Positions 12,672 to 28,960 of a DNA stretch of 64,000 bases are shown here, piece by piece. The DNA comes from Sphingobacterium thalpophilum (GTDB taxonomy: Bacteria > Bacteroidota > Bacteroidia > Sphingobacteriales > Sphingobacteriaceae). Within the stretch, counting starts at the first letter, position 1; each line of letters starts with the position of its first letter. The DNA lies in assembly GCF_038396785.1 (NCBI RefSeq), contig NZ_CP151087.1:1798001-1862000 (forward strand). Reading direction: 5' to 3'. Below the pieces are notes generated by a model. That model searched no databases, was not told the origin of the DNA, and was given only the letters and a program-made list of their open reading frames with translations. The position numbers were made by a program, and so were the translations under genes.

Positions 12672-12744
12672 TTTTCTATTCGTTTAAAAGATTCGATTAA
12701 TTTTTATCAAAAGAAAAAGCTTAATCGCTCCAAAAACTGTACAT

Positions 12745-12757
12745 TTGAACAGTTCAA
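12745..12757. promoter_or_regulatory. Palindrome TTGAAC-a-GTTCAA upstream of MFS gene
   Basis: Perfect 6-1-6 palindrome 68 bp before the MFS transporter start. It could be an operator for a dimeric regulator. The regulator is not adjacent, so this is a guess from symmetry and position. Confidence 0.35.
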
Positions 12758-12824
12758 TTGAAAGACGGATCGATACCGCTATCCATGTTCTTTTTTGAAT
12801 ATTCACACACGATAAAATTACACC

Positions 12825-13997: not shown

Positions 13998-14154
13998 CCT
14001 TTATTGCTTTTACAAACTCATGCAGGACAAAACCTCATTTCCTCTTTAAATGTATTTCTCAATGGATAGCGGAGAAATCAGTAAACTGCGCAGTAATTCG
14101 AGTACCGAGAAGAACAGATAAGATCGAATACATGTTTTTATATGCCACGCAATT

Positions 14155-14163
14155 ATATTGCAT
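14155..14163. repeat. Left target-site duplication ATATTGCAT
   Basis: Nine bases abutting the left tip of the IS4 element. The same nine bases abut the outer tip of the IS4 right-end remnant at 28005-28013, but do not occur next to the inner right tip at 15512. Confidence 0.85.
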
Positions 14164-14190
14164 CACTTGCGTCCTAAACGTTTAAAAAGT

Positions 14191-14250
14191 GGCGGTGATT
14201 GGATATAGCAAAGTTGCTATATTTAAATTGCAAAATTATAACACACCGCC
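14191..14250 (+). promoter_or_regulatory. Fold-back structure before the IS4 transposase start
   Basis: GGCGGTG (14191-14197) pairs with CACCGCC (14244-14250), which directly precedes the ATG at 14251, and T14190 can pair with the A of the ATG. Between them ATATAGCA/TGCTATAT (14203-14222) forms an inner hairpin. In transcripts entering from outside, this would hide the translation start. IS10 and IS50, also IS4-related, use such structures to block read-through expression. Confidence 0.5.
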
Positions 14251-15426
14251 ATGATAAATTTAAATGTTTTTAGTCAGATTTTATCTCTTATCGACCGCGA
14301 ATTATTCAAAGATTTGGTTTCAAAGCACAAAAGTGACAAACATCAGAAAGGGATCAACAGCTGGACGCATCTAGTCAGTATGCTTTTCTGTCATTTTTCC
14401 TCGGCAGATTCGGTCCGTGATATTAGTAACGGTCTACGCAGTACCACTGGTAATCTGAACCACTTAGGTGTAGTAAGAGCTCCAAGTAAGTCTAATATAT
14501 CCTATATCAACACACACCGTACCCATGAACTTTTCAAAGATCTTTACTATTCTGTTTTGGATAGGCTTTGGCAAAAGGACACCCATTTTCGCAAAGAGCT
14601 TGTTCAGCTAAAGCGTAAAGTATATCTGATGGATGCAAGCATCATCCCCTTATGTCTATCTGTATTTGACTGGGCAAAGTTTCGTAGCACCAAAGGTGCC
14701 GTAAAGCTGCACACTGTCTTGGATTATGATGGCTGCCTACCTGTTTTTATGCAGATTACCGATGGAAAAGTACATGAGAGCCAGCGAGCCGGTAGTTACA
14801 GTTTTTCCAAGGGAAGCGTGGTGGTAGTGGACCGTGGCTACGTGGATTACAGCTGGCTTGGGGATTTGGACAGCAGGGGTTGTTATTTTGTTACCAGGAG
14901 TAAAGTGAACATGAAGTACAACGTTATCAAGTCCTACCAGAACGATGCCCTTAAGGAAAAGGGCATCCTTAAGGATGAGCTCATTGAGCTTTCCGGCGCT
15001 GCCCGCAATAAATACAATTCCACACCGTTACGCCTGATCCACTTTTGGGACAGCACCACTGGCAATGAGTACCACTTTTTGACCAATAATACGAAGTGGA
15101 AGGCTTCTTTGGTGGCAAACATCTATAAACAACGCTGGCATATCGAAGTCTTCTTCAAGCATCTAAAGCAGCGCTTAAAAGTATCGACATTCATAGGGAC
15201 TTCTGAAAATGCAGTGATGATCCAGATCTGGACTTCACTCATTGGCATATTACTGTTAAAATACTTACAAAAAAAGGCCAAATATGACTGGAACCTGTCC
15301 AATCTGGTCGCATTCATCAGAATGAATATCTTCGTGAAAATAAACATCTGGCAATGGATAGATGATCCCTTTCTCAGGCCGCCTATAAAAGGAAAAAAGG
15401 GACAGCTAAAGATCTTCGCAGATTGA
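14251..15426 (+). CDS. IS4-family transposase
   Basis: Intact 391-residue DDE transposase. The catalytic residues are D128 (VYLMDASIIP), D194 (VVVVDRGYVDYSW) and E299 in YKQRWHIEVFFKHLK, which matches the IS4 signature Y-x2-R-x3-E-x6-K (Y292, R295, E299, K306). An N-terminal domain (HLVSMLFCHFSSADSVRDISNGL) is standard for the family. No frameshift or stop, so the element is probably active. The terminal 74 bp of this gene are repeated in the remnant at 27845. Confidence 0.95.
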   Translation: MINLNVFSQILSLIDRELFKDLVSKHKSDKHQKGINSWTHLVSMLFCHFSSADSVRDISNGLRSTTGNLNHLGVVRAPSKSNISYINTHRTHELFKDLYYSVLDRLWQKDTHFRKELVQLKRKVYLMDASIIPLCLSVFDWAKFRSTKGAVKLHTVLDYDGCLPVFMQITDGKVHESQRAGSYSFSKGSVVVVDRGYVDYSWLGDLDSRGCYFVTRSKVNMKYNVIKSYQNDALKEKGILKDELIELSGAARNKYNSTPLRLIHFWDSTTGNEYHFLTNNTKWKASLVANIYKQRWHIEVFFKHLKQRLKVSTFIGTSENAVMIQIWTSLIGILLLKYLQKKAKYDWNLSNLVAFIRMNIFVKINIWQWIDDPFLRPPIKGKKGQLKIFAD

Positions 15427-15659
15427 AAAATAGGGGTCAATATCGAAATGATGAAAAAAGCTATGCTTGTACCACAGAAATCCAATCTTAAAATTTATTT
15501 AGGACACATATGTTAGGGAAATATTTAAAAATAAGCAATCGAAATCTTATTTAAAAAAACAGAACTAATTATTTGTTAGAGAATATTTTTTATAAATATT
15601 CTCCAATATCTCTTCCTAATTTTGTATTAAATCTTTAATATATATTTGCTTATAGAATA

Positions 15660-15700
15660 AAAAAAACAAGAGTGGATAACGATTTATTATTCACTCTTGT
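15660..15700 (-). terminator. Terminator of the YtxH gene
   Basis: Stem ACAAGAGTG/CACTCTTGT (15666-15674 with 15692-15700). On the minus strand it is followed by a T-run. It lies just past the YtxH stop codon. Confidence 0.7.
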
Positions 15701-15727
15701 AAGATATAGTAAATTGGAAATTAAGTA

Positions 15728-16078
15728 CTAAGTTTTAAGATTATTTTTTGTTGAACCTGCCTGTATTTTGACATCTTCTACTCTGGAAGTCACCTGATCT
15801 TTCAGTTTATCAAAACCATCTGTCACCGAATTAGCGACATTACTTGCCGTCTCTTTAACACTCGCAGAAGCATTGTTAAACTGGTCCTTCACGGCGTCAC
15901 TAAGTTCTCCATATTTATTCTTTGCCTGATCCTTTAAATCATCTGACTTTTTCTTAATTTTCTTTCTCGTTTCTTCTCCACTGTCCGGAGCAAACAATAG
16001 TCCTAGTAGTGCTCCAATAGCAGCACCGGCCAGCATTCCCAGAACTAAGCCTGATTTATTGTCTTTGTTGTTGCACAT
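15728..16078 (-). CDS. YtxH domain-containing stress protein
   Basis: 116 residues. A glycine-rich membrane segment (GLVLGMLAGAAIGALLGLLFAPDSGEETRKKI, about residues 9-40) is the YtxH hallmark. A long amphipathic helical tail follows, with repeats of Lys, Asp and Ala (DDLKDQAKNKYGELSDAV, SVTDGFDKLKDQVTSRVEDV), like plant LEA proteins. Such proteins are induced in general stress; the mechanism is not known. First cargo gene of the mobile unit, with its own terminator. Its promoter region faces the MaoC gene. Confidence 0.85.
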   Translation of the reverse strand: MCNNKDNKSGLVLGMLAGAAIGALLGLLFAPDSGEETRKKIKKKSDDLKDQAKNKYGELSDAVKDQFNNASASVKETASNVANSVTDGFDKLKDQVTSRVEDVKIQAGSTKNNLKT

Positions 16079-16395
16079 GGTAATTTTATATTAAGTGGTT
16101 TGTAATTAAATGTATATAAACAAAAAATACAATTAACATACCAACTTAACCAGTCTTCAAAATAAAGACAAAGTTTAGGTAATAATCGGAAATGTTAACC
16201 GTACTTAAACCTATCACATCATTTATTCATTGCTTTTCAAAATAAAATCTCATTAAAGCTTCATTTGCCTTAATTTCTGTCTAATATCCTAAATAGACAA
16301 TATCTCGGAAGCTTAGCAGTTATTAAATTATGATATTAACATCCATTTATTTAAACTTGTTCTATATCAGTTATTACAGACTAACCTAAGCTTAT
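16079..16395. other. Divergent intergenic region
   Basis: Separates the YtxH and MaoC genes, which point away from each other. It should contain both promoters, but I see no full TTTG/TAnnTTTG match, no strong hairpin and no small gene. Confidence 0.5.
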
Positions 16396-16857
16396 ATGGT
16401 AATTATCAACAATTTTGAAGAATATAAATCCTACGAGGGAAAACTTATAGGGGCTTCTCTGTGGCATACGATTAACCAGAAGCAGATCGATCTCTTTGCT
16501 GAGGCAACTCATGACCATCAATGGATACATGTCGACCGACAAAAAGCCGAGAAAGAAGGTCCCTTTTCTTCAACGATTGCACATGGGTACCTGACTTTAT
16601 CCCTGATTCCTTATCTCTGGAAACAGATTGCAGATGTTAGAAACGTGAAAATGGAAATCAATTATGGAATAGAAAATTTTAAATTTGGACAAGCCGTTCC
16701 TGTAAATAGTGAAGTACAACTCCAGGCCACCGCAAAATCCATCTGTAACCTTCGCGGAACAGTAAAAGTGATTATTGAAGCTAAACTTGTAATCAAAAAT
16801 CAAATTAAACCAGCTTACATCGGGAATGTTATATTTTTATATCATTTCAATACCTAA
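16396..16857 (+). CDS. MaoC-like hot-dog dehydratase/hydratase
   Basis: 153 residues, one MaoC hot-dog domain. The catalytic pair fits D40 and H45 in EATHDHQWIHVD, followed by FSSTIAHGYLTLSLIPYL, the conserved second block. Family members are (R)-specific enoyl-CoA hydratases or dehydratases of acyl chains; a single domain acts as a dimer. The substrate is unknown, with lipid remodelling plausible. It is convergent with the DUF6766 gene, 7 bp apart. Confidence 0.88.
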   Translation: MVIINNFEEYKSYEGKLIGASLWHTINQKQIDLFAEATHDHQWIHVDRQKAEKEGPFSSTIAHGYLTLSLIPYLWKQIADVRNVKMEINYGIENFKFGQAVPVNSEVQLQATAKSICNLRGTVKVIIEAKLVIKNQIKPAYIGNVIFLYHFNT

Positions 16858-16864
16858 ACCCGCT

Positions 16865-17533
16865 CTATTTACCTGTTTCAGCATTTGCCGCATCCACGGG
16901 TTTTGATTCTGGTGATCCTTTTTGACGGAGAAAGATTGTAAGGATCACAATGGAGGCAACCGACAGGAATTCGCTTTGCCAATTTTGGAATGTCTCAAAC
17001 CAAAACTGCGGTTCGGCAAGAAAGTCCAATAAACTTTTTTCGGGTTTGCCACGTAAGGTTTCCTGAAGGTTGGCATCTTTAAAACTACCATATAAATGTC
17101 CCGCCCAGCTGAAAATGAATAGGATTACAAATGCGATTGATAGCGAGTTTTGATAAAGAATCAGACGCCATCCTCCTTTCTTTACCGGCCGAGGAGCACC
17201 ATTGCGTGTGGGATCGGGCAACCTATCCACTTCTTCTTGTTTTTCCGGATCTTTTGATTCAGCCGATCCAACCTGCCGCAAGGAGATTGTAAGCATTACG
17301 TAAAGTGCCATCTGTAAAAATTCACTTTGGAAATTTTCAAAAGTTGCCGAGAAAAAATGGCCACTTCCTAAATAAGAATAAAATCTAATTTCATGCGCCC
17401 CTAAATCTTTCAGCTCTTCATTGTGTTCCTTCCATCCAAAAAATGCCTGAGCTCCCAATGCTAAAACAAACAAGGAAATAAAAACAATCGACAGACTATT
17501 TCTATAAAAAAAACTTTGCTTTTTATTATTCAT
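16865..17533 (-). CDS. DUF6766-like four-helix membrane protein
   Basis: 222 residues made of two similar halves. Each half starts with a helix (YRNSLSIVFISLFVLALGAQAFFGW; YQNSLSIAFVILFIFSWAGHLYGSF) and ends with a second helix after a WQSEFL/FQSEFL motif and LRQ(V/K)GS. The halves are joined by a basic Pro-rich linker (DPTRNGAPRPVKKGG). An internal duplication is obvious. It looks like the DUF6766 family, of unknown function. The ATG overlaps the stop of the CinA-like gene by 4 bp (ATGA), so the two are translationally coupled. Confidence 0.72.
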   Translation of the reverse strand: MNNKKQSFFYRNSLSIVFISLFVLALGAQAFFGWKEHNEELKDLGAHEIRFYSYLGSGHFFSATFENFQSEFLQMALYVMLTISLRQVGSAESKDPEKQEEVDRLPDPTRNGAPRPVKKGGWRLILYQNSLSIAFVILFIFSWAGHLYGSFKDANLQETLRGKPEKSLLDFLAEPQFWFETFQNWQSEFLSVASIVILTIFLRQKGSPESKPVDAANAETGK

Positions 17534-18018
17534 GGCTTCTTAAAAGATTTTATAACAGTTTTAATAATGTCTTCAATCGTGCAGTACACAATTTCGCGGG
17601 CTGATCCGCTGAATACTTTCCTATGTTCAATCGTTTTTTCTTTGATCAAAATGCAGTAAAACATCGTTCCTACAGGCTTTCCAGGGCCTTCGCTTCCACC
17701 AGGAGTTGTAAGGCCGGTAACAGCAACAACAACATCGGCATCCATCATCTTTTTAACCCGGAACGCCATCTCTTTAGTTACTTCGGCAGATTCCGGTGTG
17801 TATTTCTCTATAAGTCCTTTAGGCACCCCTAGAATTTTTTCTTTTATATGCGCATCATAACAGACTATACCACCCCGCAAAATCTCCCCAGAATGTTCGC
17901 TTTGTGAAAATTCAAACGCTAACATCCCTGCCGTTGCACTTTCCGCAAAAGCGATCGTGTATTTAGCAGTAGCAAGGAGATTGCTACACTCTTCGATTAA
18001 TTCTTTTAAATCCCTCAT
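17530..18018 (-). CDS. CinA C-terminal domain protein (nicotinamide-nucleotide amidase-like)
   Basis: 162 residues, the stand-alone CinA_C/PncC-type domain. FAESATAGMLA holds the catalytic Ser, VCYDAHIKEKILGV follows, and AVTGLTTPGGSEGPGKPVGTMF is the signature loop. The enzyme class deamidates NMN to nicotinate mononucleotide, recycling nicotinamide nucleotides released for example by NAD-dependent reactions. The ATG at 18018 (MRDLKELIEECSNLL) is chosen; a longer frame from 18099 adds a hydrophobic stretch absent from the family. It is followed directly by the DUF6766 gene. Confidence 0.85.
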   Translation of the reverse strand: MRDLKELIEECSNLLATAKYTIAFAESATAGMLAFEFSQSEHSGEILRGGIVCYDAHIKEKILGVPKGLIEKYTPESAEVTKEMAFRVKKMMDADVVVAVTGLTTPGGSEGPGKPVGTMFYCILIKEKTIEHRKVFSGSAREIVYCTIEDIIKTVIKSFKKP

Positions 18019-18239
18019 ATTTCTGTTTTTAGAATTTAATTTTATTAATACTAATATCTTCACTAAAATACTGCATATAAACAACACCCAAACCGTCAAG
18101 GTTTACCGTATTTTTAAATTCCTGAAGCGCAGGTTTAAACAAAATTGCCTCTTATTTTTTAACAAGTGTTAAATTTCTTTTATTGAACCAAAATGGTATA
18201 GCCTTGGTTATCTATGAAATACACTTAAAAATTTTTATT

Positions 18240-18803
18240 ATGGCAACAACAAAATCTGTACCGGCGAAAAATGCCGCAAAGAAACCTTCCGGAAATACCG
18301 GAAAAATGAAAGACAGTGAATTCCACGAATTTTTCGTTGATGAATTAAAAGACATTTATTGGGCAGAGAAACACCTTGTGAAAGCTTTACCTAAAATGCA
18401 AAAAGCAGCGACCAGTGAAAAACTTGCAGCTGCATTTGAAAAGCATACCAAGGAAACTCAGACACATATAGAAACACTTGAACAGGTATTTGAAAAATTG
18501 GGAGAAAAAGCTGTCGCAAAAAAATGTGACGCTATGCAGGGTTTGCTTGATGAAGCAGATTCCATTATCTCTGACACAGACAAAGGAACCTTTACAAGAG
18601 ATGCAGGTCTTATCCTTGCCGCACAAAAAGTTGAACATTACGAGATCGCAACTTACGGAACACTTCGCACATTTGCAGAAACGATGGGCCATGATGATGT
18701 GGCTGCACTGCTCCAGCAAACACTGGATAATGAAAAAGATACTGACGAAGCATTGACGGGTGTAGCTGAAGGGTTCATCAACGAGCAAGCGGCAGAGGAA
18801 TAG
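18240..18803 (+). CDS. Ferritin-like DUF892 (YciE/YciF) stress protein
   Basis: 187 residues from the ATG at 18240 (MATTKSVPAKNAAKK, a basic Ala/Lys-rich lead). An upstream in-frame ATG is less likely. The body is the DUF892 four-helix bundle: FHEFFVDELKDIYWAEKHLVKALPKM, AAAFEKHTKETQTHIETLEQVF, AAQKVEHYEIATYGTLRTFAE. The Glu and His residues (E-x2-H patterns) are the expected di-iron ligands. YciE/YciF proteins are induced by osmotic and general stress. Two terminators follow. Confidence 0.9.
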   Translation: MATTKSVPAKNAAKKPSGNTGKMKDSEFHEFFVDELKDIYWAEKHLVKALPKMQKAATSEKLAAAFEKHTKETQTHIETLEQVFEKLGEKAVAKKCDAMQGLLDEADSIISDTDKGTFTRDAGLILAAQKVEHYEIATYGTLRTFAETMGHDDVAALLQQTLDNEKDTDEALTGVAEGFINEQAAEE

Positions 18804-18887
18804 TCAAAATTAAGGTAATCCGAACAATAAAAAACCAAAATCATTAAACATTGTTCTATTATTACGTTTTATAAAATAGGTATATAT

Positions 18888-18921
18888 CAAAAGCTTTGGG
18901 CTCCCAGCTCAAGGCTTTTTT
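18888..18921 (+). terminator. Terminator after the DUF892 gene
   Basis: Imperfect stem, AAAAGC-t-TTGgGCT pairing with AGCtCAA-g-GCTTTT around the loop ccc, followed by TTTTT. Confidence 0.7.
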
Positions 18922-18991
18922 ATGAAAACAATAGGCCTCTATATTTGTTATTGGCATTAACTCAACTATATTAAGTACATTTCATGTTTAG

Positions 18992-19025
18992 AGGTCGAAT
19001 TTAGTAATTCGACCTTTTATATTTT
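18992..19025 (+). terminator. Second terminator, perfect stem
   Basis: AGGTCGAATT-tagt-AATTCGACCT, a perfect 10-bp stem, followed by TTTATATTTTT. A double stop after one gene suggests strong insulation, or the tail of a lost gene. Confidence 0.7.
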
Positions 19026-19286
19026 TGTTAGCCATTTTTCCTCAAATTTCCATCTCGGTTATCCAACTATTGAGATCAAGATTATGGCATTTTTTGAAGT
19101 GAAGTGAGTGAAAGCTCATTTAAGACAAAGTAATAGCACGGTGATCTTGATCGAAGAGGTGGATCTGGAAAAAAAATCAGAGTGTCCTCGCCCGCGCAGT
19201 ACCTCGTTAACTATGTTTTGATCTAGAAACAAAAAATTACTCATGATCCTTTGGATCACTTGCGTGTTTCATGCATTTAATTTTGG

Positions 19287-19571
19287 TTATCTATCGATAT
19301 ATTTTTCAGTTACCTTCCAAACATCGGATTTTTCAATATTCTGTAAAACCCATGCTTTGGCTGCTATGGCAGTTCCAGCGACAGTTGTATAGGGAGCAAC
19401 ATACATATTAATTTGATCCGGCTCAATTACCTCGATATCACCCGTGGAAATCGCACCATCTGAAAAATCGATAATTACCTCGATATACACGCAGTCCATT
19501 AACGGTCGAAAATTAAACTTTCCCAGGCTACCTGTATAAATATGTGTATTGTCAAAGTTTATATGTCTCAT
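19287..19571 (-). CDS. Small protein of unknown function
   Basis: 94 residues, MRHINFDNTHIYTGSLGKFNF at the start, a mixed alpha/beta pattern (VYIEVIIDFSDGAISTGDIEVIEPDQINMYV) and an Ala-rich helix (AGTAIAAKAWVLQNIEKS) at the end. No signal peptide, no family I recognise. Codon pattern and acidic, ordered composition suggest a real protein. It lies in the mobile unit between the DUF892 gene and ligD. Confidence 0.5.
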   Translation of the reverse strand: MRHINFDNTHIYTGSLGKFNFRPLMDCVYIEVIIDFSDGAISTGDIEVIEPDQINMYVAPYTTVAGTAIAAKAWVLQNIEKSDVWKVTEKYIDR

Positions 19572-19786
19572 AACGCTTATAGTGAATCACTCTTAAGACT
19601 CATCTTTGGTATTCTTGACAAGACTTATTCCATAAGAGAAGAAAATAAGCGCCTAGATACCGACTACCGCCAAATTTGTATAAGCGGTGCTTTTCATGAT
19701 GAGTTCATAGCCTGTAAATTAATCCTCCTATCCCTAATATTGTCAGAATAGTTCCGAATATCCGTTTTACGTTCATAATTTCTTTA

Positions 19787-22507
19787 TTATTTGTTTAATT
19801 TCTGATTATCCGAAAATTTTTCTATTGCAGCTTTAAGATCGATGCCTTTACCAAGAATAGGTTTAAAAATATCACCTTCAGACTGCATTCGTTCTATCGC
19901 ATTGAAAATATGGAAGTCAGACATTTTTAGGCCTTTCTTGACTTCATCCCAATGCAAAGGCATTGATACAGTTGCGCCCGTTTTTGGTCGAACGGAGTAA
20001 ACCGAGGCAATGGTGGCATGCGGCCTGTTCTGTAGAAAATCAAGGTACATTTTCCCCTTACGATCTTTAATAGCACGTTCAAGAGTGGTATAATCAGGTA
20101 GCTCTCGATGCACCAGCGTTACAATAACACGTGCAAATTCCTTGCACTGTTCATAGGTATATTTATTACCTAATGGGATGTATATATGCAATCCTGTTGA
20201 GCCGCTCGTTTTACAATATGAGGGTACGCCCATGTCATCAAGAATTTGCTTAGTAACCTGTGCTGCTTCAATTACCTGATCAAACGAATTCTTGTCAGGA
20301 TCTAGATCGATGATGCAATAGGTGGGATGTTCCGGCTTTTTAACGGTACTGTTCCAGGGATTCATTTCGATGCATCCCAAATTGGCCATGTACAGTAATG
20401 TCGCCTCGTCTTTTCCGACGAGATAATGCCTGACTTTATCATCAGAATCACTGTGATAAAGGTAAGTATCGGCCCATTCCGGTGCTGTATCAGTGACATT
20501 TTTAAAATAGAAACCTTCGTCCTCTATTCCGTTTGGAAACCTGTTCATGCTCTGTGGCCTTCCTTTTAGATAAGGTAGGATAAAGGGTGCTGCCTGATAA
20601 TAATAGTTGATCAGATCCCTTTTCGTAATTTTTTCTTTCGGCCAGAATATTTTGTCCAGGTTGGTAAATTTTAGTTCGTGCTTATTGATCTTTCTGACCT
20701 GCGTCTTATCATTAGGATTCAGCAAGGTCTTACGGCCATTGTCAGATCGTGAAGGTACAATTGACCTTGTATTATCCTCTTCGATTATTTCTTCAATAGG
20801 TTCTTCATTTTCAAGCACGACTTTCTTAGCACTTTTATCTTCCCGCATACCATCAAATGATGGATGCCGCATTACCCCATCGCTGGTCATTTCCGTAAAA
20901 CTCACCTCACACACAAGTTCGGGTTTAAGCCATGTTACGGTTGCATGGGGTGGATTGGGTCTGAACCGCGAAGGTTTATTGACATCGGGCTCTTCGGCAA
21001 AGGGCACTTTCTTTGTAATCAAAGGCTTGAATTGCGCCATCATTTCTTTCTGCATTTTCTCATTGAATCCAGTACCTACCTTACCCGTATAGACCAGTTT
21101 TTTACCTTCATATACGCCAACGAGGATACTGCTAAAGAGTTTGTTGGAATCGTCGTTTAAGGTAAATCCGCCAATGACTACTTCCTGCCGCTTATTGGCT
21201 TTTATCTTGAGCCAATCGCGTGAACGGTTATGGATATGATATATGCTGTCCTTCCGTTTGGCCATAATCCCTTCAAGACCGAGTTTTTTGGCTTCCTCCA
21301 AGAAAGCAATACCCGAAGTTTCAAAATGTTCACTTACTAATATATTATCGCTCTTAGGCAGGATTTCTTTCAATATGGCTTTACGCTCGCAAAGTGTTAA
21401 TTCAGTAAGATCTTTCTCTTTGTACCATAAGATATCGAATATATAATAAACCAGATCGCCGTCCGCTTCACTCCGCCAGTTCTGTAATGAACCGAAATTC
21501 GCGGTACCATTTTTGGAGAGTACAACAACCTCACCATCAATAATGGCATCAAGATCCATATCTTTTAACGCGTCATATACCGGATAAAACTTTTCATTAA
21601 AGCTTTTATCATTGCGCGATTTAAGCTCTACCTTACTACCTTTCATAAATGCTACGGCTCTATAGCCGTCCCATTTCACTTCATAAATCCAGCCTTCGTC
21701 ATCAAAAGGTTTATCGACAAGGGTAGCAAGCATAGGTTCCACAATGGTATAAAAAGCCTGTTTGGGTGCCTTTTTTAATAATTCGGCAACTTTTTTTGAT
21801 GCTTTTATTCCTTGTGCAGGTACAGCCTCCAACTGATCAGTTATTATTTCCTCCGCCTCCTTTGCAGATGACTTTTTATCCTTTACTGTGGTATCTTTCT
21901 TGATGATGTTTTTCCCATACACCCTGTCCGGTGATTTTTCCATCTGGGCAATGGTCTTTTTTGAAATAACGGATTTATCTTTAAGTGTAACATCATCCGT
22001 TGTGGCATATTTGTCATCAAGCTTAAATAATAGCCACCCATTCTCGCCCCTTCCATGGGCCTTCACAAGAACAAACTCACCTTTGAGCTTACTGCCATTG
22101 AGTTTGAATTTTATTTTTCCTGAATTGAGCTGATGGAGCAGACTTTTTTCCATCTTTTTAAGATCTTCCCCTTCAAAATCAACTGCTTCATAGGTTCCCT
22201 CATCCCACACAATCACTGTTCCGCCACCGTACTGTCCTTTAGGGATGATGCCTTCAAAATTGCGGTAATCATAGGGATGATCTTCGACCATCATGGCCAG
22301 ACGTTGAATTTCAGGGTCCAACGATGGCCCTTTTGGAACCGCCCAGCTTTTTAAAACGCCGTCCATTTCCAGACGAAAATCATAATGCAAATGGGAAGCA
22401 TCATGTTTTTGTACTACAAAGCGCAACTCTTTCCCACTCGGCTTCCCGCCGAAAGGTTCCGGGGTTTTCTCCTCCGAACGCTTTTGGCGATATTTAGATA
22501 ATCCCAT
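19787..22507 (-). CDS. ligD: DNA ligase D (phosphoesterase-ligase-polymerase)
   Basis: 906-residue multifunctional enzyme of bacterial non-homologous end joining. Domain order is 3'-phosphoesterase, ATP-dependent ligase, primase-polymerase. The phosphoesterase (about 10-170) has H35, H41, D43 and H77 in VVQKHDASHLHYDFRLE and MMVEDHPYDY. The ligase (about 250-560) has its nucleophile K278 in YEVKWDGYRAV. The polymerase (about 620-900) has IIDLDPDKNSFDQV with the metal-binding aspartates. All three active sites look intact. End joining normally needs Ku; no ku gene is in the window. It is 45 bp downstream of the DUF3606 gene and is probably in its operon. Carried inside the mobile unit. Confidence 0.95.
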   Translation of the reverse strand: MGLSKYRQKRSEEKTPEPFGGKPSGKELRFVVQKHDASHLHYDFRLEMDGVLKSWAVPKGPSLDPEIQRLAMMVEDHPYDYRNFEGIIPKGQYGGGTVIVWDEGTYEAVDFEGEDLKKMEKSLLHQLNSGKIKFKLNGSKLKGEFVLVKAHGRGENGWLLFKLDDKYATTDDVTLKDKSVISKKTIAQMEKSPDRVYGKNIIKKDTTVKDKKSSAKEAEEIITDQLEAVPAQGIKASKKVAELLKKAPKQAFYTIVEPMLATLVDKPFDDEGWIYEVKWDGYRAVAFMKGSKVELKSRNDKSFNEKFYPVYDALKDMDLDAIIDGEVVVLSKNGTANFGSLQNWRSEADGDLVYYIFDILWYKEKDLTELTLCERKAILKEILPKSDNILVSEHFETSGIAFLEEAKKLGLEGIMAKRKDSIYHIHNRSRDWLKIKANKRQEVVIGGFTLNDDSNKLFSSILVGVYEGKKLVYTGKVGTGFNEKMQKEMMAQFKPLITKKVPFAEEPDVNKPSRFRPNPPHATVTWLKPELVCEVSFTEMTSDGVMRHPSFDGMREDKSAKKVVLENEEPIEEIIEEDNTRSIVPSRSDNGRKTLLNPNDKTQVRKINKHELKFTNLDKIFWPKEKITKRDLINYYYQAAPFILPYLKGRPQSMNRFPNGIEDEGFYFKNVTDTAPEWADTYLYHSDSDDKVRHYLVGKDEATLLYMANLGCIEMNPWNSTVKKPEHPTYCIIDLDPDKNSFDQVIEAAQVTKQILDDMGVPSYCKTSGSTGLHIYIPLGNKYTYEQCKEFARVIVTLVHRELPDYTTLERAIKDRKGKMYLDFLQNRPHATIASVYSVRPKTGATVSMPLHWDEVKKGLKMSDFHIFNAIERMQSEGDIFKPILGKGIDLKAAIEKFSDNQKLNK

Positions 22508-22552
22508 AGCTTTATAATTTAAATGTTATTCGAATTAATGAAAAACAAGGTT

Positions 22553-22744
22553 TTACTTTCCGTGACGCTTCTTCAAATAATCTGTTAGCACTTTTCTATC
22601 GTTTGATCCGGTAGCACGTATAGCTCCTGTAACTGCCTGGGAACTCACACCCATTTTTTCCTTAAAATATTGGATTTCGTAATTCTCTGATCCGCTTACT
22701 TTATTTCTGTCGGATTTTCCTTTTTTTGATTTGTTGTCTGTCAT
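22553..22744 (-). CDS. DUF3606 small protein
   Basis: 63 residues. After a polar lead (DNKSKKGKSDRNKV) comes YEIQYFKEKMGVSSQAVTGAIRATGSNDRKVLTDYL, the compact DUF3606 helix-turn-helix-like fold. Such small proteins recur beside stress and repair genes in Bacteroidota and Proteobacteria; function unknown. It is the probable first gene of the ligD transcription unit. Confidence 0.85.
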   Translation of the reverse strand: MTDNKSKKGKSDRNKVSGSENYEIQYFKEKMGVSSQAVTGAIRATGSNDRKVLTDYLKKRHGK

Positions 22745-22882
22745 AATAATAGTTTAAAAGATTACAATTCAGTATTTCGATTTTTAATTAAACCTTAAGC
22801 TGGCAATCAAATATTTATATAACATCAGGCGATATAAATTCGATTGATTTCTTTTCATTTAACGCACCTTTTTTATCAGGCA

Positions 22883-23479
22883 TTAATAAAAGATCTTTCT
22901 ATCCTTAACAAGTATTAGTCTTTCTTCATTCATTTTTTTAACGGTACGGATTACAGTTTCTACACGCAGTCCCGTCAAATTTGCAATTTGCTGTCTTGTC
23001 AAGGGAAAAGAGTATGAAAACTGTCCTTCCACAGACGCAGATCTTTTATAATAATCCAGAAGAGCCAGTATTTTAGGGATCGGTTCGTTTGCTGAGTTAC
23101 CAAAAAGCATGGTGTATTTATAAAACAATCTATCTGATAGATACCCTAAAAGTCTGAATACAATACTTTTATTTTCATCCAGAAGCTGTAAAAATTGTGT
23201 TTTTGGTAAATACAGTATGGAACATTCATCTTTTGCTACAGCGTTCATTGGATAATGATTCCCTCCAAACAGAAGTGATTCACCGATACTTTGACCTGCT
23301 GATAGAATATTTAAGGTAAATTCCTTTCCATCTTCATGATAGTTATTGAGCTCTACAGTTCCTTTACTGATCTGCAGATATGCCGTGGGGCTAGCATCAC
23401 GGCTAAAAATTGTTTCTTTTGCAGCGTAATGGTGAAAAATAGCACCGTATTTAATTAGTAAATTCTCATCAATTACCAT
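22883..23479 (-). CDS. Crp/Fnr-family transcription regulator
   Basis: 198 residues. The N-terminal cyclic-nucleotide-binding-type beta roll reads IFSRDASPTAYLQISKGTVEL and LSAGQSIGESLLFGGNHYPMNAVAKDECSILYLP. The C-terminal winged helix reads LTRQQIANLTGLRVETVIRTVKKMNEERLI. No Cys cluster for an Fe-S centre is seen, so it is not an Fnr-type oxygen sensor; the ligand is unknown. The ATG at 23479 is preferred over a TTG at 23500. As the only regulator in the mobile unit it may control the other cargo genes; this is inference. Confidence 0.88.
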   Translation of the reverse strand: MVIDENLLIKYGAIFHHYAAKETIFSRDASPTAYLQISKGTVELNNYHEDGKEFTLNILSAGQSIGESLLFGGNHYPMNAVAKDECSILYLPKTQFLQLLDENKSIVFRLLGYLSDRLFYKYTMLFGNSANEPIPKILALLDYYKRSASVEGQFSYSFPLTRQQIANLTGLRVETVIRTVKKMNEERLILVKDRKIFY

Positions 23480-23687
23480 GAATAATAAACTTTTTGACAA
23501 TTAACACTCCATTTCTACCTAAGCCGCCAGCATGAGAATACAAATATTAGACCGATAAAGGGAATGCAAATTCAGCTAGATTTTAAGAAATTCTGATAAG
23601 GTATTATTTATTGTATAATAACAAATTTCAAAAACAAATTCATTGAACAATTGTTTATAAGATGCGCTAATAAAATACGTGGTCTAT

Positions 23688-23714
23688 TGATCTTTCGACT
23701 GATCTGAAAGATCA
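23688..23714. promoter_or_regulatory. 9-bp inverted repeat upstream of the 91-residue gene
   Basis: TGATCTTTC-9-GAAAGATCA, perfect arms, lying between the divergent Crp/Fnr gene and the small gene at 23750. A candidate operator or leader hairpin. Confidence 0.35.
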
Positions 23715-23749
23715 TTCCGAAATTAATCGAACTTATATTTTTTACATTT

Positions 23750-24025
23750 ATGAACGGGCTTATTTTTGACGATGTCACAATTCAGATTGGTGGTACTGCA
23801 CAATTTTTATTCGATCCTGAGATTGGGCAAAAATCCGTACCTGCAATTATTGAATTTCGCGGAGGTGAAAAAGCATATGCTGAAATTTCCGAAGTCCATG
23901 TAAATAGAATAGTAATTAAAGTTGGTGAATACTCCGCGGGACCGCAGGAAAAGCTTCCCGGGGGAAGTTGGTTTTTGCAATATAATAAGAAGAATGACAA
24001 TTGGAGAATAGTCAAAAAACTCTAA
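23750..24025 (+). CDS. Small protein of unknown function
   Basis: 91 residues with a regular beta-strand pattern (IFDDVTIQIGGTAQFLFDPE; SVPAIIEFRGGEKAYAEISEV; NRIVIKVGEYSAG) ending NDNWRIVKKL. Cytoplasmic, no signal. I do not recognise a family. It lies next to, and divergent from, the Crp/Fnr gene, and is followed by the IS110 element. Confidence 0.5.
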   Translation: MNGLIFDDVTIQIGGTAQFLFDPEIGQKSVPAIIEFRGGEKAYAEISEVHVNRIVIKVGEYSAGPQEKLPGGSWFLQYNKKNDNWRIVKKL

Positions 24026-24129
24026 TCGAAATAAACAGTTAGAATGCAGTATCTTGGTCGGTTTAGGGCTTTTCTTGGAAAACTGACTATTAAAATTTGA
24101 GCTAGCTTTATTGACCATGTTATGAGGCG

Positions 24130-24342
24130 TAATTTTTAATATCTTTCCTCTATAAATTAACTATAATACAGTCCCCTTGCGCATTGGGTTTTGCGATTTT
24201 CCTCTTCGAGTTTGGTCAGCCGTAAGGCTGGCATTAACTCATGCTTGTGTACTTATAGCCTTTTCAGGCATTTGCATTGGCCAATTTAAAAACGGGGTCT
24301 TTTAGCCACCATAAAGATACCCGGCCTTTACGCAAAAAATTG
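24130..24342 (-). ncRNA. Candidate structured non-coding end of the IS110 element
   Basis: About 210 bp of non-coding DNA directly downstream of the IS110 transposase. On the minus strand it contains short strong hairpins: GCCT-gaaa-AGGC (24258-24269), CAGCC-ttac-GGCTG (24217-24230) and the palindrome ATTGGCCAAT (24276-24285). IS110-family elements encode a bridge RNA in a non-coding end (5' of the transposase in the IS110 group, 3' in the IS1111 group). The 3' side is the longer end here. The exact ends are not determined. Confidence 0.35.
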
Positions 24343-25539
24343 TTATGGTTTAAGTTTCGCTATGCGTTCCATTTCTTTTTGGTGATACCGTATCCTGGCA
24401 TCTAGTTTGGCTGGTTCGTAGATCACCTGTAGTGCCGGATTATAAGGGGTTAAGTCTTTTAGGATATTCCATACAACAACGGATATTTTTCGTGCGATAG
24501 CGATCAGGGCCTTTTTCGAGGATTTTCTTATACTTAGACGGTTGAATTTGTCTTTAAAATAGGAGCCTTTACAGCGGCTTGCCGCCCAGGCAACCTGTAC
24601 CAGTATTGGCTTGAGATATCTGTTTCCTTTAGTGATTGCTGTACTTTTATATTTCCCTGCGCTTTCATCATTCTTTGGTCGTAATCCGACCCATCCGCTC
24701 AGTTTACCGCTGTTTTCAAAAACTTTCATGTCTGCGCCGGTCTCGGCGATGATCACAGCGGAACTGATACGGCTAACGCAGGGAATCGTCTTTAGCAAGG
24801 CACTCTGCCGTGGAAAATCACGCAGGCAGATAGCTTCAATCTTTTCTATATACTCAGCAGACTGCTTGATCAACAGGTCGTATTCAACTTTTGCCATCTG
24901 CAGGTTGAAGCGGTGGTGCTCCTTCATGCAGCCGGTTAGTGCTGCTGCCAGCTTTCCGTTTTCTTTGTTCTTCTTACTGGCATAGACCAGTTTGCTTAAA
25001 CGTACGGCATCACGCTCCCCGGCTATCAGGGCATCAATGACACTCAGCATACTTTTCCCTCCGATATCACTCACAAGACTACCCAAACGGATTCCGGCCT
25101 GTACGAGGATATTGTCCATTTTGGTAAGCATACGGACTATCCGCTGCTGCAACTTGCTATAGGAACGGGTGTAGCTCCTGAGTTCCTGTATTCGCTCACC
25201 GGGCACAAAACTCCCGCGAAGCATATCTTTGTGAAGTAGCTGGGCAATCCACTGTGCATCCTTTACATCGCTTTTGCGGCCGGGCAGCTGTTTGATTAAA
25301 AAGGGATTCACCAGCATCAGATCAAAGCCCATTTCAGAGAGAATATTCCAGACCGGGATCCAGTAAATACTGGTACTCTCCATCGCTACTCGGAGAACAC
25401 CCGCAGCCTTCAAGTAGGCTCCCAACTGTCGAATGCCCGTACTGAAGGTTTCGAAAACCTCCACATCCGAATAATGCTTCCCATTAAATACCGCACAAAA
25501 AATACTATCTTTATGCACGTCAAGTCCTGCTGTTTTCAT
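24343..25539 (-). CDS. IS110-family transposase (DEDD recombinase)
   Basis: 398 residues from the ATG at 25539 (MKTAGLDVHKDSIFCAVF). The RuvC-like DEDD residues fit D7, the Glu of VAMESTSIYWIPV, and the two Asp of GRKSDVKDAQWIAQLL. The C-terminal transposase_20 domain is seen in LLKTIPCVSRISSAVIIAETG, SGKLSGWVGLRPKNDESAGK and KGNRYLKPILVQVAWAA, which carries the helix-hairpin-helix and serine-containing catalytic region. A longer frame to 25605 is less likely. The frame is intact. It interrupts the cargo of the mobile unit between the 91-residue gene and the Nramp-like gene. Confidence 0.93.
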   Translation of the reverse strand: MKTAGLDVHKDSIFCAVFNGKHYSDVEVFETFSTGIRQLGAYLKAAGVLRVAMESTSIYWIPVWNILSEMGFDLMLVNPFLIKQLPGRKSDVKDAQWIAQLLHKDMLRGSFVPGERIQELRSYTRSYSKLQQRIVRMLTKMDNILVQAGIRLGSLVSDIGGKSMLSVIDALIAGERDAVRLSKLVYASKKNKENGKLAAALTGCMKEHHRFNLQMAKVEYDLLIKQSAEYIEKIEAICLRDFPRQSALLKTIPCVSRISSAVIIAETGADMKVFENSGKLSGWVGLRPKNDESAGKYKSTAITKGNRYLKPILVQVAWAASRCKGSYFKDKFNRLSIRKSSKKALIAIARKISVVVWNILKDLTPYNPALQVIYEPAKLDARIRYHQKEMERIAKLKP

Positions 25540-25689
25540 ATAACTTTTTTTTTCAACATAAAGATAAGCAGCGGGACTTGCTTTGATTGCGATAGCTCTC
25601 GCCAATTTTTATCCGCTTGTGTGTAATCGGAAAATTAAATGTAAATTTAATACAATTGATACTGGGACAAACCAATAAAAAATAAACCT

Positions 25690-26946
25690 ATGTCAAAAGA
25701 AAGGAATGACTCAAAAATTCTGAGATTTTTTAAAAAATTAGGTCCCGGGCTGATCACGGGTGCCAGTGACGACGATCCTTCAGGAATTGAAACCTATTCA
25801 CAGGCAGGTGCACAATTTGGACTTTCTACGTTGTGGACCGCTCTGCTTACTTTCCCGCTAATGGCAGCCATACAGGGTATGTGTGCGAGGATCGGTCTTG
25901 TAACATGCGAAGGGCTTACAGTGACACTAAAAAAACATTACTCAAAACCTATCCTTTATAGCATGCTACTTTTTAGTTTTCCTGCAATTACCCTCAATAT
26001 CGGAGCCGATATACAGGGAATGGGAGCGGTAGCAAATATGATATGTCCTAACATACCGATATCAGTTTTTTGTATTATTATCACCGCTCTGCTTCTTTTT
26101 ATCATCATAAATTATTCGTATCAGAAAATATCAATGATCCTGAAATGGCTATGTCTAAGTTTATTATTATATATAATCGTACCTTTTATGGTCGGTCAGG
26201 ACTGGCTTTTGGTTGCAAAAAAAACCTTTATACCCACGATAAAATTTGATAAAGAATTTCTTTCCATCATAGTAGCAATTCTTGGGACCACAATTTCTCC
26301 TTACTTATTCTTTTGGCAGACTACAATGGAGGCAGAAGACCAGGCCCACAAAGGTGCAATAGTAGTGGACAAGCAAATATTAAGTGAAATGAAAACCGAT
26401 GTAAATTTGGGAATGCTCCTGTCCAATATGGTTATGTTCTTTATGATTCTTACTACGGGAACCGTACTCTTTAATGGAGGAATTCATAAGATCGACACAG
26501 TGGATCAGGCTGCCAAAGCACTTGAACCGTTGGCTGGAAAGCTGACTTATTTCATTTTTGCTACCGGAGTACTGGGAACGGGAATGCTTGCAATTCCGGT
26601 TCTTGCAGGCTCACAATCTTATATGCTCGCTGAAACTTTCGGCTGGAAGGCGGGTTTAGATAAAAAATTCTCTCAGGCAAAACCTTTCTATGGTTCTATT
26701 ATAGTTTCCCTTCTCGTAGGGCTCTCACTTGACTTTTTTGGTGTAAGCCCTATTAAGGCACTGCTTTACACAGCAATTGTATATGGATTGACAGCTCCGG
26801 TCATGATCGCAGTCATCATGCATATCGCAAATAATAAAAAGATAATGGGCAAGCATACAAACACGAGGCTTTCCAATATTCTGGGAACGATGACTTTTAT
26901 ATTGATGACGGCAGCAGCTGTAGGCCTAATATACTTTATGTTTTAA
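25690..26946 (+). CDS. Nramp-related divalent metal transporter
   Basis: 418-residue membrane carrier of the SLC11/Nramp superfamily, about 11 helices. Helix 1 carries LGPGLITGASDDDPSGI where classic Mn/Fe transporters have DPGN, and the helix 6 region reads GTTISPYLFFWQTTMEAED rather than the usual MPH-containing motif. This places it in the Nramp-related branch rather than MntH proper. Some members of that branch move Mg2+. The metal cannot be fixed from sequence. It directly follows the IS110 5' end (about 150 bp), so its promoter may be partly IS-borne. Confidence 0.85.
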   Translation: MSKERNDSKILRFFKKLGPGLITGASDDDPSGIETYSQAGAQFGLSTLWTALLTFPLMAAIQGMCARIGLVTCEGLTVTLKKHYSKPILYSMLLFSFPAITLNIGADIQGMGAVANMICPNIPISVFCIIITALLLFIIINYSYQKISMILKWLCLSLLLYIIVPFMVGQDWLLVAKKTFIPTIKFDKEFLSIIVAILGTTISPYLFFWQTTMEAEDQAHKGAIVVDKQILSEMKTDVNLGMLLSNMVMFFMILTTGTVLFNGGIHKIDTVDQAAKALEPLAGKLTYFIFATGVLGTGMLAIPVLAGSQSYMLAETFGWKAGLDKKFSQAKPFYGSIIVSLLVGLSLDFFGVSPIKALLYTAIVYGLTAPVMIAVIMHIANNKKIMGKHTNTRLSNILGTMTFILMTAAAVGLIYFMF

Positions 26947-26983
26947 ACATTTTTAAAAAGAAAAGCTAGACAATCTTTGTTAA

Positions 26984-27178
26984 ATGGAAAATCAGCTAGA
27001 AATTGAAACGAAAATATTAAAGATACTTACCAATAAATATAAAAAAGATGGTGGCAATAATGGGGTTGAATTTACTGCCTTAGACCACATTCTAAATTTA
27101 AGCATACAGGATAGAAATGAATTTCTTTTTCAAATGGCAAAAGAAAAAAAGTTTTTGACCTATCCTTTTGCTAAATAA
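26984..27178 (+). CDS. Small protein of unknown function
   Basis: 64 residues, mainly helical (QLEIETKILKILTNKYKKDGG; LDHILNLSIQDRNEFLFQMAKEKKFL). It begins 37 bp after the Nramp-like gene, on the same strand, so it may be co-transcribed. Fold resembles a small winged-helix-like arrangement, but I cannot name it. Confidence 0.45.
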   Translation: MENQLEIETKILKILTNKYKKDGGNNGVEFTALDHILNLSIQDRNEFLFQMAKEKKFLTYPFAK

Positions 27179-27214
27179 TTTAGTTTTCTTATCTTTAGGT
27201 GATTAAATTTAGGT

Positions 27215-27853
27215 ATGGTAGGCAATAAAGAAAAAGAGTTGAGTTTGTTCGATTTTCAGTCGCAATTTAGCAGTGATGCTGATTGTTTAGCTTATTTATC
27301 GGCTTTGAAATGGCAAGATGGTTACAAATGTAAGAAATGTGGTTACGGGAGTTTTTGCAAGGGAATAAAAGAGCATGACCGTCAGTGCAATCGCTGCCGT
27401 TATTTGGAATCTCCTACAGCGGGCACCCTATTCCATAAGGTTAAGTTTCCTTTAGTTAAAGCCTTTTACGCAGTATACTTCATAAGTACAAACAAAAAGG
27501 GTATTGCCAGTACCGAGCTTGGCAGGAAGTTAGGGATCAAGCAAAAAGTAGCATGGTTATTCAAACGCAAAGTGATGAAAGCGATGGAGAGCAGCGGTAA
27601 ATTTCCTTTGCGTGGAGTTGTGGAAGTTGACGAAACATTTGTTGGCGGTCAGGATGAAAATTCCAAAGGACGTAAAAAAGGAAAGAAGAAGCTTGTGGTG
27701 GTTGCTATAGAAAAGAAAGGCAACGGAGTTTCGCGCTTTTACGCCAAGGTGATAGACAAAGCCGATGCGATCAACTTAGGTAGCTTCATGAAGCAAAACA
27801 TAGAGCCACAGGCTAAGGTGACCACCGACAAATGGACAGGTTATAATGGATAG
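27215..27853 (+). pseudogene. IS1595-family transposase truncated at its 3' end
   Basis: The start is normal: a zinc-ribbon (YKCKKCGYGSFC; DRQCNRCRY), then the ISXO2-like catalytic domain with its first Asp in VVEVDETFVGG and second in KVTTDKWTGYN. The frame then runs into the right-end remnant of the IS4 element and stops after one codon. The last ~80-100 residues, including the third catalytic residue, are missing, so it should be inactive. The break at about 27845 is the junction of two mobile elements. Confidence 0.9.
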
Positions 27854-28004
27854 ATGATCCCTTTCTCAGGCCGCCTATAAAAGGAAAAAAGGGACAGCTA
27901 AAGATCTTCGCAGATTGAAAAATAGGGGTCAATATCGAAATGATGAAAAAAGCTATGCTTGTACCACAGAAATCCAATCCTAAAATTTATTTAGGACACA
28001 TATG
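27845..28004 (+). mobile_element. Right-end remnant of the IS4-family element
   Basis: 160 bp repeating 15353-15512 (the last transposase codons, 3' non-coding and right tip) with a single difference (C at 27980 against T at 15488). Its outer tip CACATATG abuts the second ATATTGCAT. It shows that a second IS4 copy, now mostly lost, once closed the right side. Confidence 0.95.
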
Positions 28005-28013
28005 ATATTGCAT
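28005..28013. repeat. Right target-site duplication ATATTGCAT
   Basis: Identical to 14155-14163. Together they define the insertion site of the 13.8-kb unit. The ancestral site reads ...caatt-ATATTGCAT-ataaaagg. Confidence 0.85.
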
Positions 28014-28038
28014 ATAAAAGGTAATTTATCTAAGTTTG
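28008..28038 (+). promoter_or_regulatory. Promoter of the ABC exporter operon, -33 box within the target duplication
   Basis: TTG (28008-28010), 20-bp spacer, TAAGTTTG (28031-28038), a good match to the Bacteroidota TTTG/TAnnTTTG promoter. The -7 box is only 7 bp before the ATG, so the mRNA would have almost no leader. Confidence 0.5.
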
Positions 28039-28045
28039 ATTTATC

Positions 28046-28960
28046 ATGTTAAGCAATTATTTAAAGCTTCAGTATACTTTACTGTCTCGGCATATTCGGG
28101 CTACAGGACTGCCTGTTTGGCTCGCCTTTCTCCTGTTGTTTGGATTATGTTATTTTGCTTATTATGCTTTGGTTCAATACCCGCTTTTTGGTTGTTATGC
28201 ACTACTGCTTTGCAATTTTCAAGCACTATTTTTGCTCACAGAAAAAAACAGAAATGATTTTCTCAAAAACACATACAGTAAACGAGATTTTCACAAGATC
28301 AGAATAGTTGAGAATGGGCTATTAACGCTGCCGTCCTTCGTCATTCTTCTCCTCCACAGCCAATGGCACTATGCGTTGTTATTGGATACTTTGGCTGTTG
28401 TTTTTGCATTTTTGACATTTGCGGCTTTCGGAAAATCTATTCCGACACCTTTCGTAAAAAAACCTTTTGAATTTATCATCGGGTTCCGACGGAGCTACTT
28501 GCTTTTGCTTGTATTGTATCTATTGGCTGGAATCGGTTTTTATGTCGCCAATTCCAATCTTGTTTTATTTTGCGTCGTATGCGTTGCGCTCACCTGCGTT
28601 TTCTATTATCAATTGCCGGAGCCTATTTTTTACCTCTGGAATCACCATCATACACCAACAGTCTTTCTGATGCGAAAGTTTAAAAGGGGAATTTTACAGT
28701 GTCTGCTCTTGGTACTGCCCCTTCTTTTTCTGTATGTTGTCATCTTTCCATCGGATTTATTTAATGCCTGTATTGTATTGGGCGGAATATTACTTTTACT
28801 TTCTTTTGCAATCACATTGAAATACGTCGCTTACCCACGGGAGATCAATTTCCCCGAAGGCTTTGCTTTGGCACTTTGTTTTAGCTTTTACCCTTTGATT
28901 CTAGCGCTCTTACCTTTTTATTATATCAAAGCAATCAACAATCTAAAAAATCACTTATGA
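28046..28960 (+). CDS. ABC exporter membrane subunit
   Basis: 304-residue polytopic membrane protein with several hydrophobic helices (VWLAFLLLFGLCYFAYYAL; YLLLLVLYLLAGIGFYV; ILQCLLLVLPLLFLYVVIF; FALALCFSFYPLILALL). No soluble domain. Its last 4 bp overlap the ATP-binding subunit gene (ATGA), which identifies it as the permease of that transporter. The family is a Bacteroidota-type permease without assigned substrate. Only 42 bp separate it from the mobile unit, so the insertion sits on its promoter. Confidence 0.75.
   Translation: MLSNYLKLQYTLLSRHIRATGLPVWLAFLLLFGLCYFAYYALVQYPLFGCYALLLCNFQALFLLTEKNRNDFLKNTYSKRDFHKIRIVENGLLTLPSFVILLLHSQWHYALLLDTLAVVFAFLTFAAFGKSIPTPFVKKPFEFIIGFRRSYLLLLVLYLLAGIGFYVANSNLVLFCVVCVALTCVFYYQLPEPIFYLWNHHHTPTVFLMRKFKRGILQCLLLVLPLLFLYVVIFPSDLFNACIVLGGILLLLSFAITLKYVAYPREINFPEGFALALCFSFYPLILALLPFYYIKAINNLKNHL

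What the first reader, a model, noticed from the sequence alone, without database searches (positions are those of the whole stretch)
14155..28013. A 13.8-kb composite transposon carrying DNA-repair and stress genes
Seen: a complete IS4-family element on the left, a 160-bp copy of its right end on the right with one mismatch, and the same 9 bp (ATATTGCAT) outside the two outermost tips but not beside the inner right tip at 15512. Known: target duplications flank a unit that moved as a whole, and IS4 family members make duplications of about this size. Inferred: the unit, with ligD, CinA-like, YciE, YtxH, DUF3606, Crp/Fnr and Nramp-like genes, entered here in one step and later lost most of its right IS4 copy. 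The rival view is a resident IS4 into which cargo was added by recombination within or next to the element. I know of no described transposon with this cargo.
Basis: partly seen in the sequence, partly recalled or inferred. Interest (0 to 1): 0.85.

Follow-up and report, generated by a model that had tools for sequence, protein, structure and literature searches.

The report
IS4 composite transposon carrying stress genes
A 13.8-kb block of DNA-repair and stress genes in a Sphingobacterium chromosome lies between two copies of one jumping element (one now cut short) and likely jumped in as a single unit; the same genome holds three smaller blocks framed by the same element, two of which can be traced back to the places they came from.

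Summary
In detail: a complete 1,349-bp IS4-family copy (14164-15512), a 160-bp right-end copy (27845-28004, one mismatch), ATATTGCAT outside both outer tips. Three relatives carry ATATTGCAT once at the aligned empty site; in 20 of 92 relatives the flanking genes are adjacent without insert. The element makes 9-bp duplications: 26 of 39 full copies have their own.

The genome holds three more composites of this IS. For two, a solo IS elsewhere has flanks matching the composite's inner ends, and relatives show the segment in place there. One donor IS favours transposition or copying over circle exchange; the other is ambiguous.

Two corrections. The right IS ends in a two-base join to a truncated IS1595 element, so it was likely lost by deletion. 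A MAG of another Sphingobacterium shares unit and flanks (10291-30387) at 99.6% or more, 81-92% outside, so the region likely also moved by flanking recombination, unless its contigs are chimeric; direction uncertain. The genus carries related stress genes, including a native LigD here. New member of a known kind.

The parts
14155..14163 (.). left copy of 9-bp target duplication ATATTGCAT
   Evidence: single in empty sites of three relatives
14164..15512 (+). complete IS4-family element, 1349 bp, subgroup IS4Sa by ends, size and repeat length
   Evidence: subgroup table in PMC2266710 (passages)
14251..15426 (+). transposase, 391 aa (DDE_Tnp_1, NF033592 IS4 family)
15513..15521 (.). TTAGGGAAA, inner flank of the left IS; expected to be the donor-site duplication; none of the 39 full copies has it as left flank
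15728..16078 (-). YtxH-domain protein
16396..16857 (+). MaoC-domain protein
16865..17533 (-). DUF6766 protein
17530..18099 (-). CinA C-terminal-domain (PncC-like) protein
18183..18803 (+). YciE-like protein (DUF892)
19787..22507 (-). LigD with phosphoesterase, ligase and primase-polymerase domains, 906 aa
22553..22744 (-). DUF3606 protein
22883..23500 (-). Crp/Fnr-type regulator
24140..25650 (-). IS110-family element inside the cargo; 15 other near-full copies listed in this genome
25690..26946 (+). Nramp-family transporter; not found in MAG G070
27155..27846 (+). IS1595-family element missing its last ~277 of ~969 bp, joined to the IS4 remnant
27845..28004 (+). right IS4 remnant, element positions 1190-1349 (2-bp overlap with the IS1595 fragment)
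28005..28013 (.). right copy of ATATTGCAT
10291..30387 (.). stretch whose two flanking parts are nearly identical to MAG G070 (14 differences in 10291-14163, 2 in 28005-30387), against 81-92% outside in 600-bp bins; the part 24228-27866 is not covered by a placed MAG contig

Best explanation
The 13.8-kb stretch is a segment of stress and repair genes framed by one complete and one truncated copy of a 1,349-bp IS4-family element and by a 9-bp target repeat, and it most likely came here as a composite transposon. Shown: IS ends at both edges, the 9-bp repeat outside them only, 9-bp duplications by this IS, and relatives with one 9-mer at the empty site. Inferred: in an unknown donor two IS copies had landed on either side of a ligD-YciE stress island; the transposase then acted on the outer left and outer right ends together and pasted the whole segment into ATATTGCAT. 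Inferred from the join: an IS1595-family element sat beside or in the right IS, and a deletion sealed at a 2-bp AA match removed about 277 bp of it and whatever of the right IS lay before position 1190. Inferred from the identity profile: the occupied region was then exchanged between this lineage and another Sphingobacterium by homologous recombination through the flanks; the direction is uncertain, and only the left edge speaks for this lineage as the source.
For: Boundaries and repeats. Empty sites: single ATATTGCAT in G080, G091 and G076; flanking genes adjacent, at most 412 bp between the matched parts, in 20 of 92 relatives, none with an insert. 9-bp duplications: 26 of 39 full copies, plus two apparently interrupted copies with matching outer 9-mers. 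Same IS forms composites elsewhere: 1302729-1305604 (178 bp inside), 651827-654983 (459 bp), 188120-194329 (3,512 bp, lutABC-like), each with an identical outer 9-mer. Donor loci: the 178-bp segment is contiguous with both flanks of the solo IS at 433086 in G037 (100/100/99.8%) and G056 (96-99%), with 9-bp overlaps; the 459-bp segment with both flanks of the solo IS at 162552 in G051. Mechanism: the solo IS at 433086 carries over positions 440-1349 the haplotype of the 178-bp composite's downstream IS (1 difference; next best of the 38 other copies 7), as expected if the composite was transposed or copied and the donor then collapsed; a reciprocal circle exchange predicts no such sharing. IS1595 join. 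Exchange tract.
Against: No second location and no two-full-IS version of the 13.8-kb unit was seen, so transposition as a unit is not shown for this unit itself. Insertion of a cargo-bearing molecule into a resident IS would leave the same outer repeats. For the 459-bp composite the donor IS is identical to three ordinary copies and is not a mix of the composite's two IS copies, which simple composite transposition followed by collapse does not predict; its donor 9-mer also has one mismatch (TAATTTATT against TAATTTATA). In the 178-bp case positions 171-439 of the donor IS fit a third copy (L073, 0 differences) slightly better than the downstream copy (1) or the upstream copy (2). Copying by gene conversion into a resident IS would also explain the 178-bp case. 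The donor of the 13.8-kb cargo is unknown.
Confidence: 0.58

Rival explanations
1. Resident IS first: a lone IS4 copy inserted at ATATTGCAT, and a cargo molecule carrying the same IS (a circle or an incoming linear fragment) then recombined with it by homology, giving IS-cargo-IS with the resident copy's repeats outside; the right IS later decayed.
For: Gives the same outer repeats. This genome has 41 IS4 left tips to recombine with, and homologous exchange near the site is evident. For the 459-bp composite the donor IS is not a mix of the composite's copies.
Against: No lone IS was seen at this site: 20 of 20 relatives with both flanks adjacent are empty. For the 178-bp composite the donor IS shares its 3' two-thirds with the composite's downstream copy, which a reciprocal circle exchange does not predict. 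The two IS copies of the 3.5-kb composite are not clear reciprocal hybrids, though the pattern is not decisive.
Confidence: 0.27
2. The unit did not transpose at this site in this lineage at all: the occupied site was brought in ready-made by homologous recombination of a ~20-kb tract from another Sphingobacterium, where the insertion had happened.
For: Near-identity with MAG G070 in the shared cargo part and 2.4-3.9 kb of each flank, 81-92% outside. At the right edge the background of G070 (G079-like) continues across the boundary as well as that of this genome (G080-like), so direction is open there.
Against: At the left edge this genome's background continues (own to G079 94-95.5% outside, 91-94% in the first 1.2 kb inside), while G070 is 87-90.5% to G079 outside and 90.5-94% inside. 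It only shifts the insertion to another genome.
Confidence: 0.12
3. Chance or assembly artefact: unrelated IS4 copies beside unrelated cargo, with a coincidental 9-mer.
For: Only 160 bp of the right IS remains.
Against: Single-contig genome; single 9-mer in empty sites; 7 cross matches against 0.0035 expected; a separate assembly, the MAG, holds most of the pieces.
Confidence: 0.02

Closest known systems
Composite transposons of the IS4 family (Tn10 with IS10, Tn5 with IS50)
   Same: Same transposase family, about 9-bp target duplication outside the two outermost tips, cargo between two IS copies. That IS10R and IS50R are parts of composite transposons: PMC2266710 (passages).
   Different: The IS copies are in direct orientation (inverted in Tn10 and Tn5, recalled), the IS fits subgroup IS4Sa rather than IS10 or IS50, the right IS is a 160-bp remnant, and the cargo is stress and repair genes rather than drug resistance (their cargo is recalled).
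IS26 pseudo-compound transposons and translocatable units
   Same: Segments between direct IS copies move to a place where the same IS is; a donor with a single IS can remain (recalled).
   Different: IS26 belongs to the IS6 family (search listing), and its units join next to a resident IS26 without new target repeats (recalled). Here the IS is IS4 family and each composite has its own outer 9-mer.
IS-IS recombination with exchanged or missing target repeats (Ngan et al. 2024, PMC11708052; abstract and passages seen)
   Same: Explains IS copies without matching repeats, as at 433086 and 162552.
   Different: In the abstract and passages seen, that work concerns deletions and duplications in laboratory E. 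coli and Pseudomonas; the word composite does not occur in its main text as held.

Membership tests
IS4 family, subgroup IS4Sa | IS4-family DDE transposase | tested here: met
   NF033592 254.5 bits against cut-off 115; DDE_Tnp_1
IS4 family, subgroup IS4Sa | YREK motif, Y-(2)-R-(3)-E-(6)-K | tested here: met
   YKQRWHIEVFFKHLK in the translation, read by eye; the spacing is recalled, the YREK motif is named in PMC2266710
IS4 family, subgroup IS4Sa | ends CA------T, 1150-1750 bp, direct repeat 8-10 bp (table in PMC2266710) | tested here: met
   CACTTGCGT and CATATGTGT ends, 1349 bp, 9 bp in 26 of 39 full copies
Composite transposon | two copies of one IS at the two ends | tested here: inconclusive
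   left complete, right only 160 of 1349 bp
Composite transposon | one target duplication outside the outermost tips and none of the same sequence at the inner tip | tested here: met
Composite transposon | empty site with one target copy | tested here: met
   G080, G091, G076
Composite transposon | same unit at a second place, or shown to move | tested here: inconclusive
   no second location among 93 genomes searched, but at most 3 candidates were scored per genome and the list was cut; movement itself cannot be tested with these tools
IS26-type pseudo-compound transposon | IS6-family IS | tested here: not met
   IS4-family transposase
Integrative or conjugative element | integrase, relaxase or transfer genes in the unit | tested here: not met
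   no such Pfam hit in the 15 cargo and IS ORFs of the unit scanned; the other short ORFs were not scanned

The most novel reading that the evidence does not exclude
This IS4Sa-type element works as a general carrier of chromosomal DNA: at about 40 copies per genome it repeatedly brackets arbitrary segments, lifts them to new sites as composites with fresh 9-bp repeats, and leaves a single IS with mismatched flanks behind; the stress-gene unit is the largest such cargo seen here, and flanking recombination then carries the finished product between species.
Probability: 0.43. Interest if true: 0.62.

Novelty: new member of a known kind. Interest (0 to 1): 0.5.

Why it matters
Composite transposons are known mostly from selected drug-resistance cargo, usually without a traceable donor (recalled). 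Here one genome keeps four composites of one IS with ordinary chromosomal cargo, and for two of them both the place of origin and the new place can be read. That makes the question of composite transposition versus IS-IS recombination testable from sequence. It also shows a route by which a genome can gain a second LigD and stress-gene set.

Tried and rejected
Donor of the 13.8-kb cargo inside this genome: rejected, none of 39 full copies has TTAGGGAAA as left flank. Absence of Nramp in MAG G070 as evidence of late arrival in the window genome: not used, because a ~1.8-kb contig between repeats may fall below binning size (inference). The right neighbour of IS110 in G070 stays unknown: contigs C22 and C117 end in its right end, but the parts compared do not continue into window sequence. 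'Broken native LigD': the stop reported is not inside the gene, since the frame is open for 948 aa. Reciprocal-circle model for the 178-bp composite: disfavoured; for the 459-bp composite neither model fits cleanly. I also softened the claim on the IS copies of the 3.5-kb composite, and the novel case went from 0.45 to 0.43. Literature: (open-access PMC subset; one search showed 15 of 36 papers, 15 of 107) listed, by titles and abstract beginnings, no composite transposon with ligD or this cargo in Sphingobacterium. Beyond listings I saw only passages of PMC2266710 and the abstract and passages of PMC11708052.

Full report
Check of the observation. The transposase scores as IS4 family. Ends, size and repeat length fit subgroup IS4Sa in the table of PMC2266710 (passages).

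The element in its genome. The window is C1:1798001-1862000 of a single-contig 5.75-Mb genome. There are 41 left tips with at most 3 mismatches in 23 bases: 39 full copies and two apparently interrupted ones. 26 of 39 full copies have identical 9-mers on both sides, and both interrupted copies have matching outer 9-mers. The element therefore makes 9-bp duplications.

The empty site. In 20 of 92 relatives both flanking genes lie side by side on one contig with at most 412 bp between the matched parts, and none has an insert. In the other relatives, apart from G070, the two flanks were not seen together in the matches listed (one search scored 3 candidates per genome and cut its weak end). G080, G091 and G076 align through the joined window flanks with ATATTGCAT once; G061 has a single 9-mer with two differences; G079 keeps the right half (ten loci given, of which the two G070 contigs hold one flank each and L014, L015 and L016 aligned only on the right side away from the 9-mer).

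Other composites, two with their donors. 13 full copies lack their own repeat. Among their flanks and that of the right remnant there are 7 exact matches between different copies, against 0.0035 expected. They resolve into four composites with identical outer 9-mers: the window unit; 188120-194329 (3,512 bp inside, with CCG, LUD/LutB and LUD proteins and a phosphorylase-superfamily protein); 651827-654983 (459 bp); and 1302729-1305604 (178 bp). Two solo IS copies have flanks equal to the inner ends of the last two: 433086 for the 178-bp segment (exact on both sides) and 162552 for the 459-bp segment (exact on one side, one mismatch on the other). The remaining four copies without own repeat (at 1674099, 2267330, 4592267, 5656864) stay unexplained. 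In G037 the 178-bp segment is contiguous with both flanks of the 433086 copy over about 3.2 kb at 99.8-100%, with 9-bp overlaps; G056 shows the same at 96-99%. In G051 the 459-bp segment is contiguous with both flanks of the 162552 copy at 88-97%, the left flank matching over its last 235 bp only; in G080, G037, G091 and G061 it is contiguous with the right flank. In G051 the gene there is an open frame and YetF-like; in the window genome its parts lie at the two places. Matches were found in 7 of 9 relatives for the 459-bp segment and 8 of 9 for the 178-bp segment, several of them short.

Transposition or recombination. If a composite is transposed or copied and the donor then collapses between its two IS copies, the donor IS should be 5' of the upstream copy plus 3' of the downstream copy. 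If a circle leaves the donor and enters a resident IS, donor and composite should share no stretch by descent. At 433086 the donor IS differs from the downstream copy at 1 position over 440-1349 (next best of the other 38 copies: 7); its first 170 positions equal the upstream copy, as they do eight others; positions 171-439 fit a third copy best (0 differences; downstream 1, upstream 2). At 162552 the donor IS is identical to three ordinary copies and fits neither model. The two IS copies of the 3.5-kb composite are of two different sub-types and not clear reciprocal hybrids, but this is not decisive. For the window unit the right IS is too short for the test; its 160 bp are identical to the copy at 324735.

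The right edge. The IS1595-family element has ten other copies listed in this genome. In the window its last ~277 of ~969 bp are missing and it runs straight into IS4 position 1190 with AA shared at the join. A deletion is the simplest cause, so the right IS4 copy was longer before; that it was complete is inferred.

The cargo. Pfam names YtxH, MaoC, DUF6766, CinA, DUF892 (YciE), LigD with all three domains, DUF3606, Crp, IS110, Nramp and IS1595; three short ORFs have no hit. No Ku, integrase or transfer gene was seen among the 15 ORFs scanned. Pieces of the same neighbourhood are chromosomal in the genus: LigD and YciE in this genome (LigD 157553-160264, YciE beside it), YtxH-DUF6766-CinA and part of YciE in G066, YciE and two small genes in G077. 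The cargo LigD is 79% identical to the native one, so the strain has two.

Sharing with another species. MAG G070 (Sphingobacterium sp. feces_ps_bin.10) has the left flank with IS left end, the cargo from the inner IS tip into IS110, and the right flank with IS right end, on three contigs. There are 14 differences in 10291-14163, 2 in 28005-30387, and 13 plus a 48-bp gap in 15413-24227; outside, identity is 88-92% on the left and 81-92% on the right in 600-bp bins. Direction: at the left edge this genome's background continues and that of G070 does so less well; at the right edge both continue, this genome G080-like and G070 G079-like, so it decides nothing. Caveats: MAG contigs can be chimeric, the part right of IS110 is not placed in the MAG, and Nramp was not found there.

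Verdict. A well-supported IS4-bounded unit, most likely a composite transposon with a decayed right end, in a genome where the same IS frames three other segments, two of them traced to their old places. The kind is known; the cargo and the traceable donors are the new part.

Noticed in passing
own genome C1:188120-194329 (L141): Intact composite of two full IS4 copies in direct orientation around a lutABC-like lactate-use operon and a phosphorylase-superfamily gene, outer repeat TTATCAATA.
   Followed up: partly
own genome C1:433086-434434 and C1:1302729-1305604: Solo IS with mismatched flanks and the composite that holds the missing 178 bp, about 0.87 Mb apart.
   Followed up: yes
own genome C1:162552-163900 and C1:651827-654983: Solo IS beside the native ligD region, splitting a YetF-like gene whose first part lies in a composite about 0.49 Mb away.
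   Followed up: yes
own genome C1:1674099-1676805 (L084): Two IS4 copies in tandem exactly 9 bp apart; ATTTATACA follows each copy, so only the second has its own repeat.
   Followed up: no
own genome C1:1172886-1175663 and 4275859-4278511: Two IS4 copies apparently interrupted by inserts of unknown kind, outer 9-bp repeats intact.
   Followed up: no
window 18951-18998: 48 bp present in the window cargo and absent in the MAG cargo.
   Followed up: no
L130 (G091) around the empty site: Left flank 97-100% over 12701-14163 but right flank 75-89% over 28005-31304 to the window, switching at or near the site; the flanks are a recombination mosaic in the genus.
   Followed up: partly
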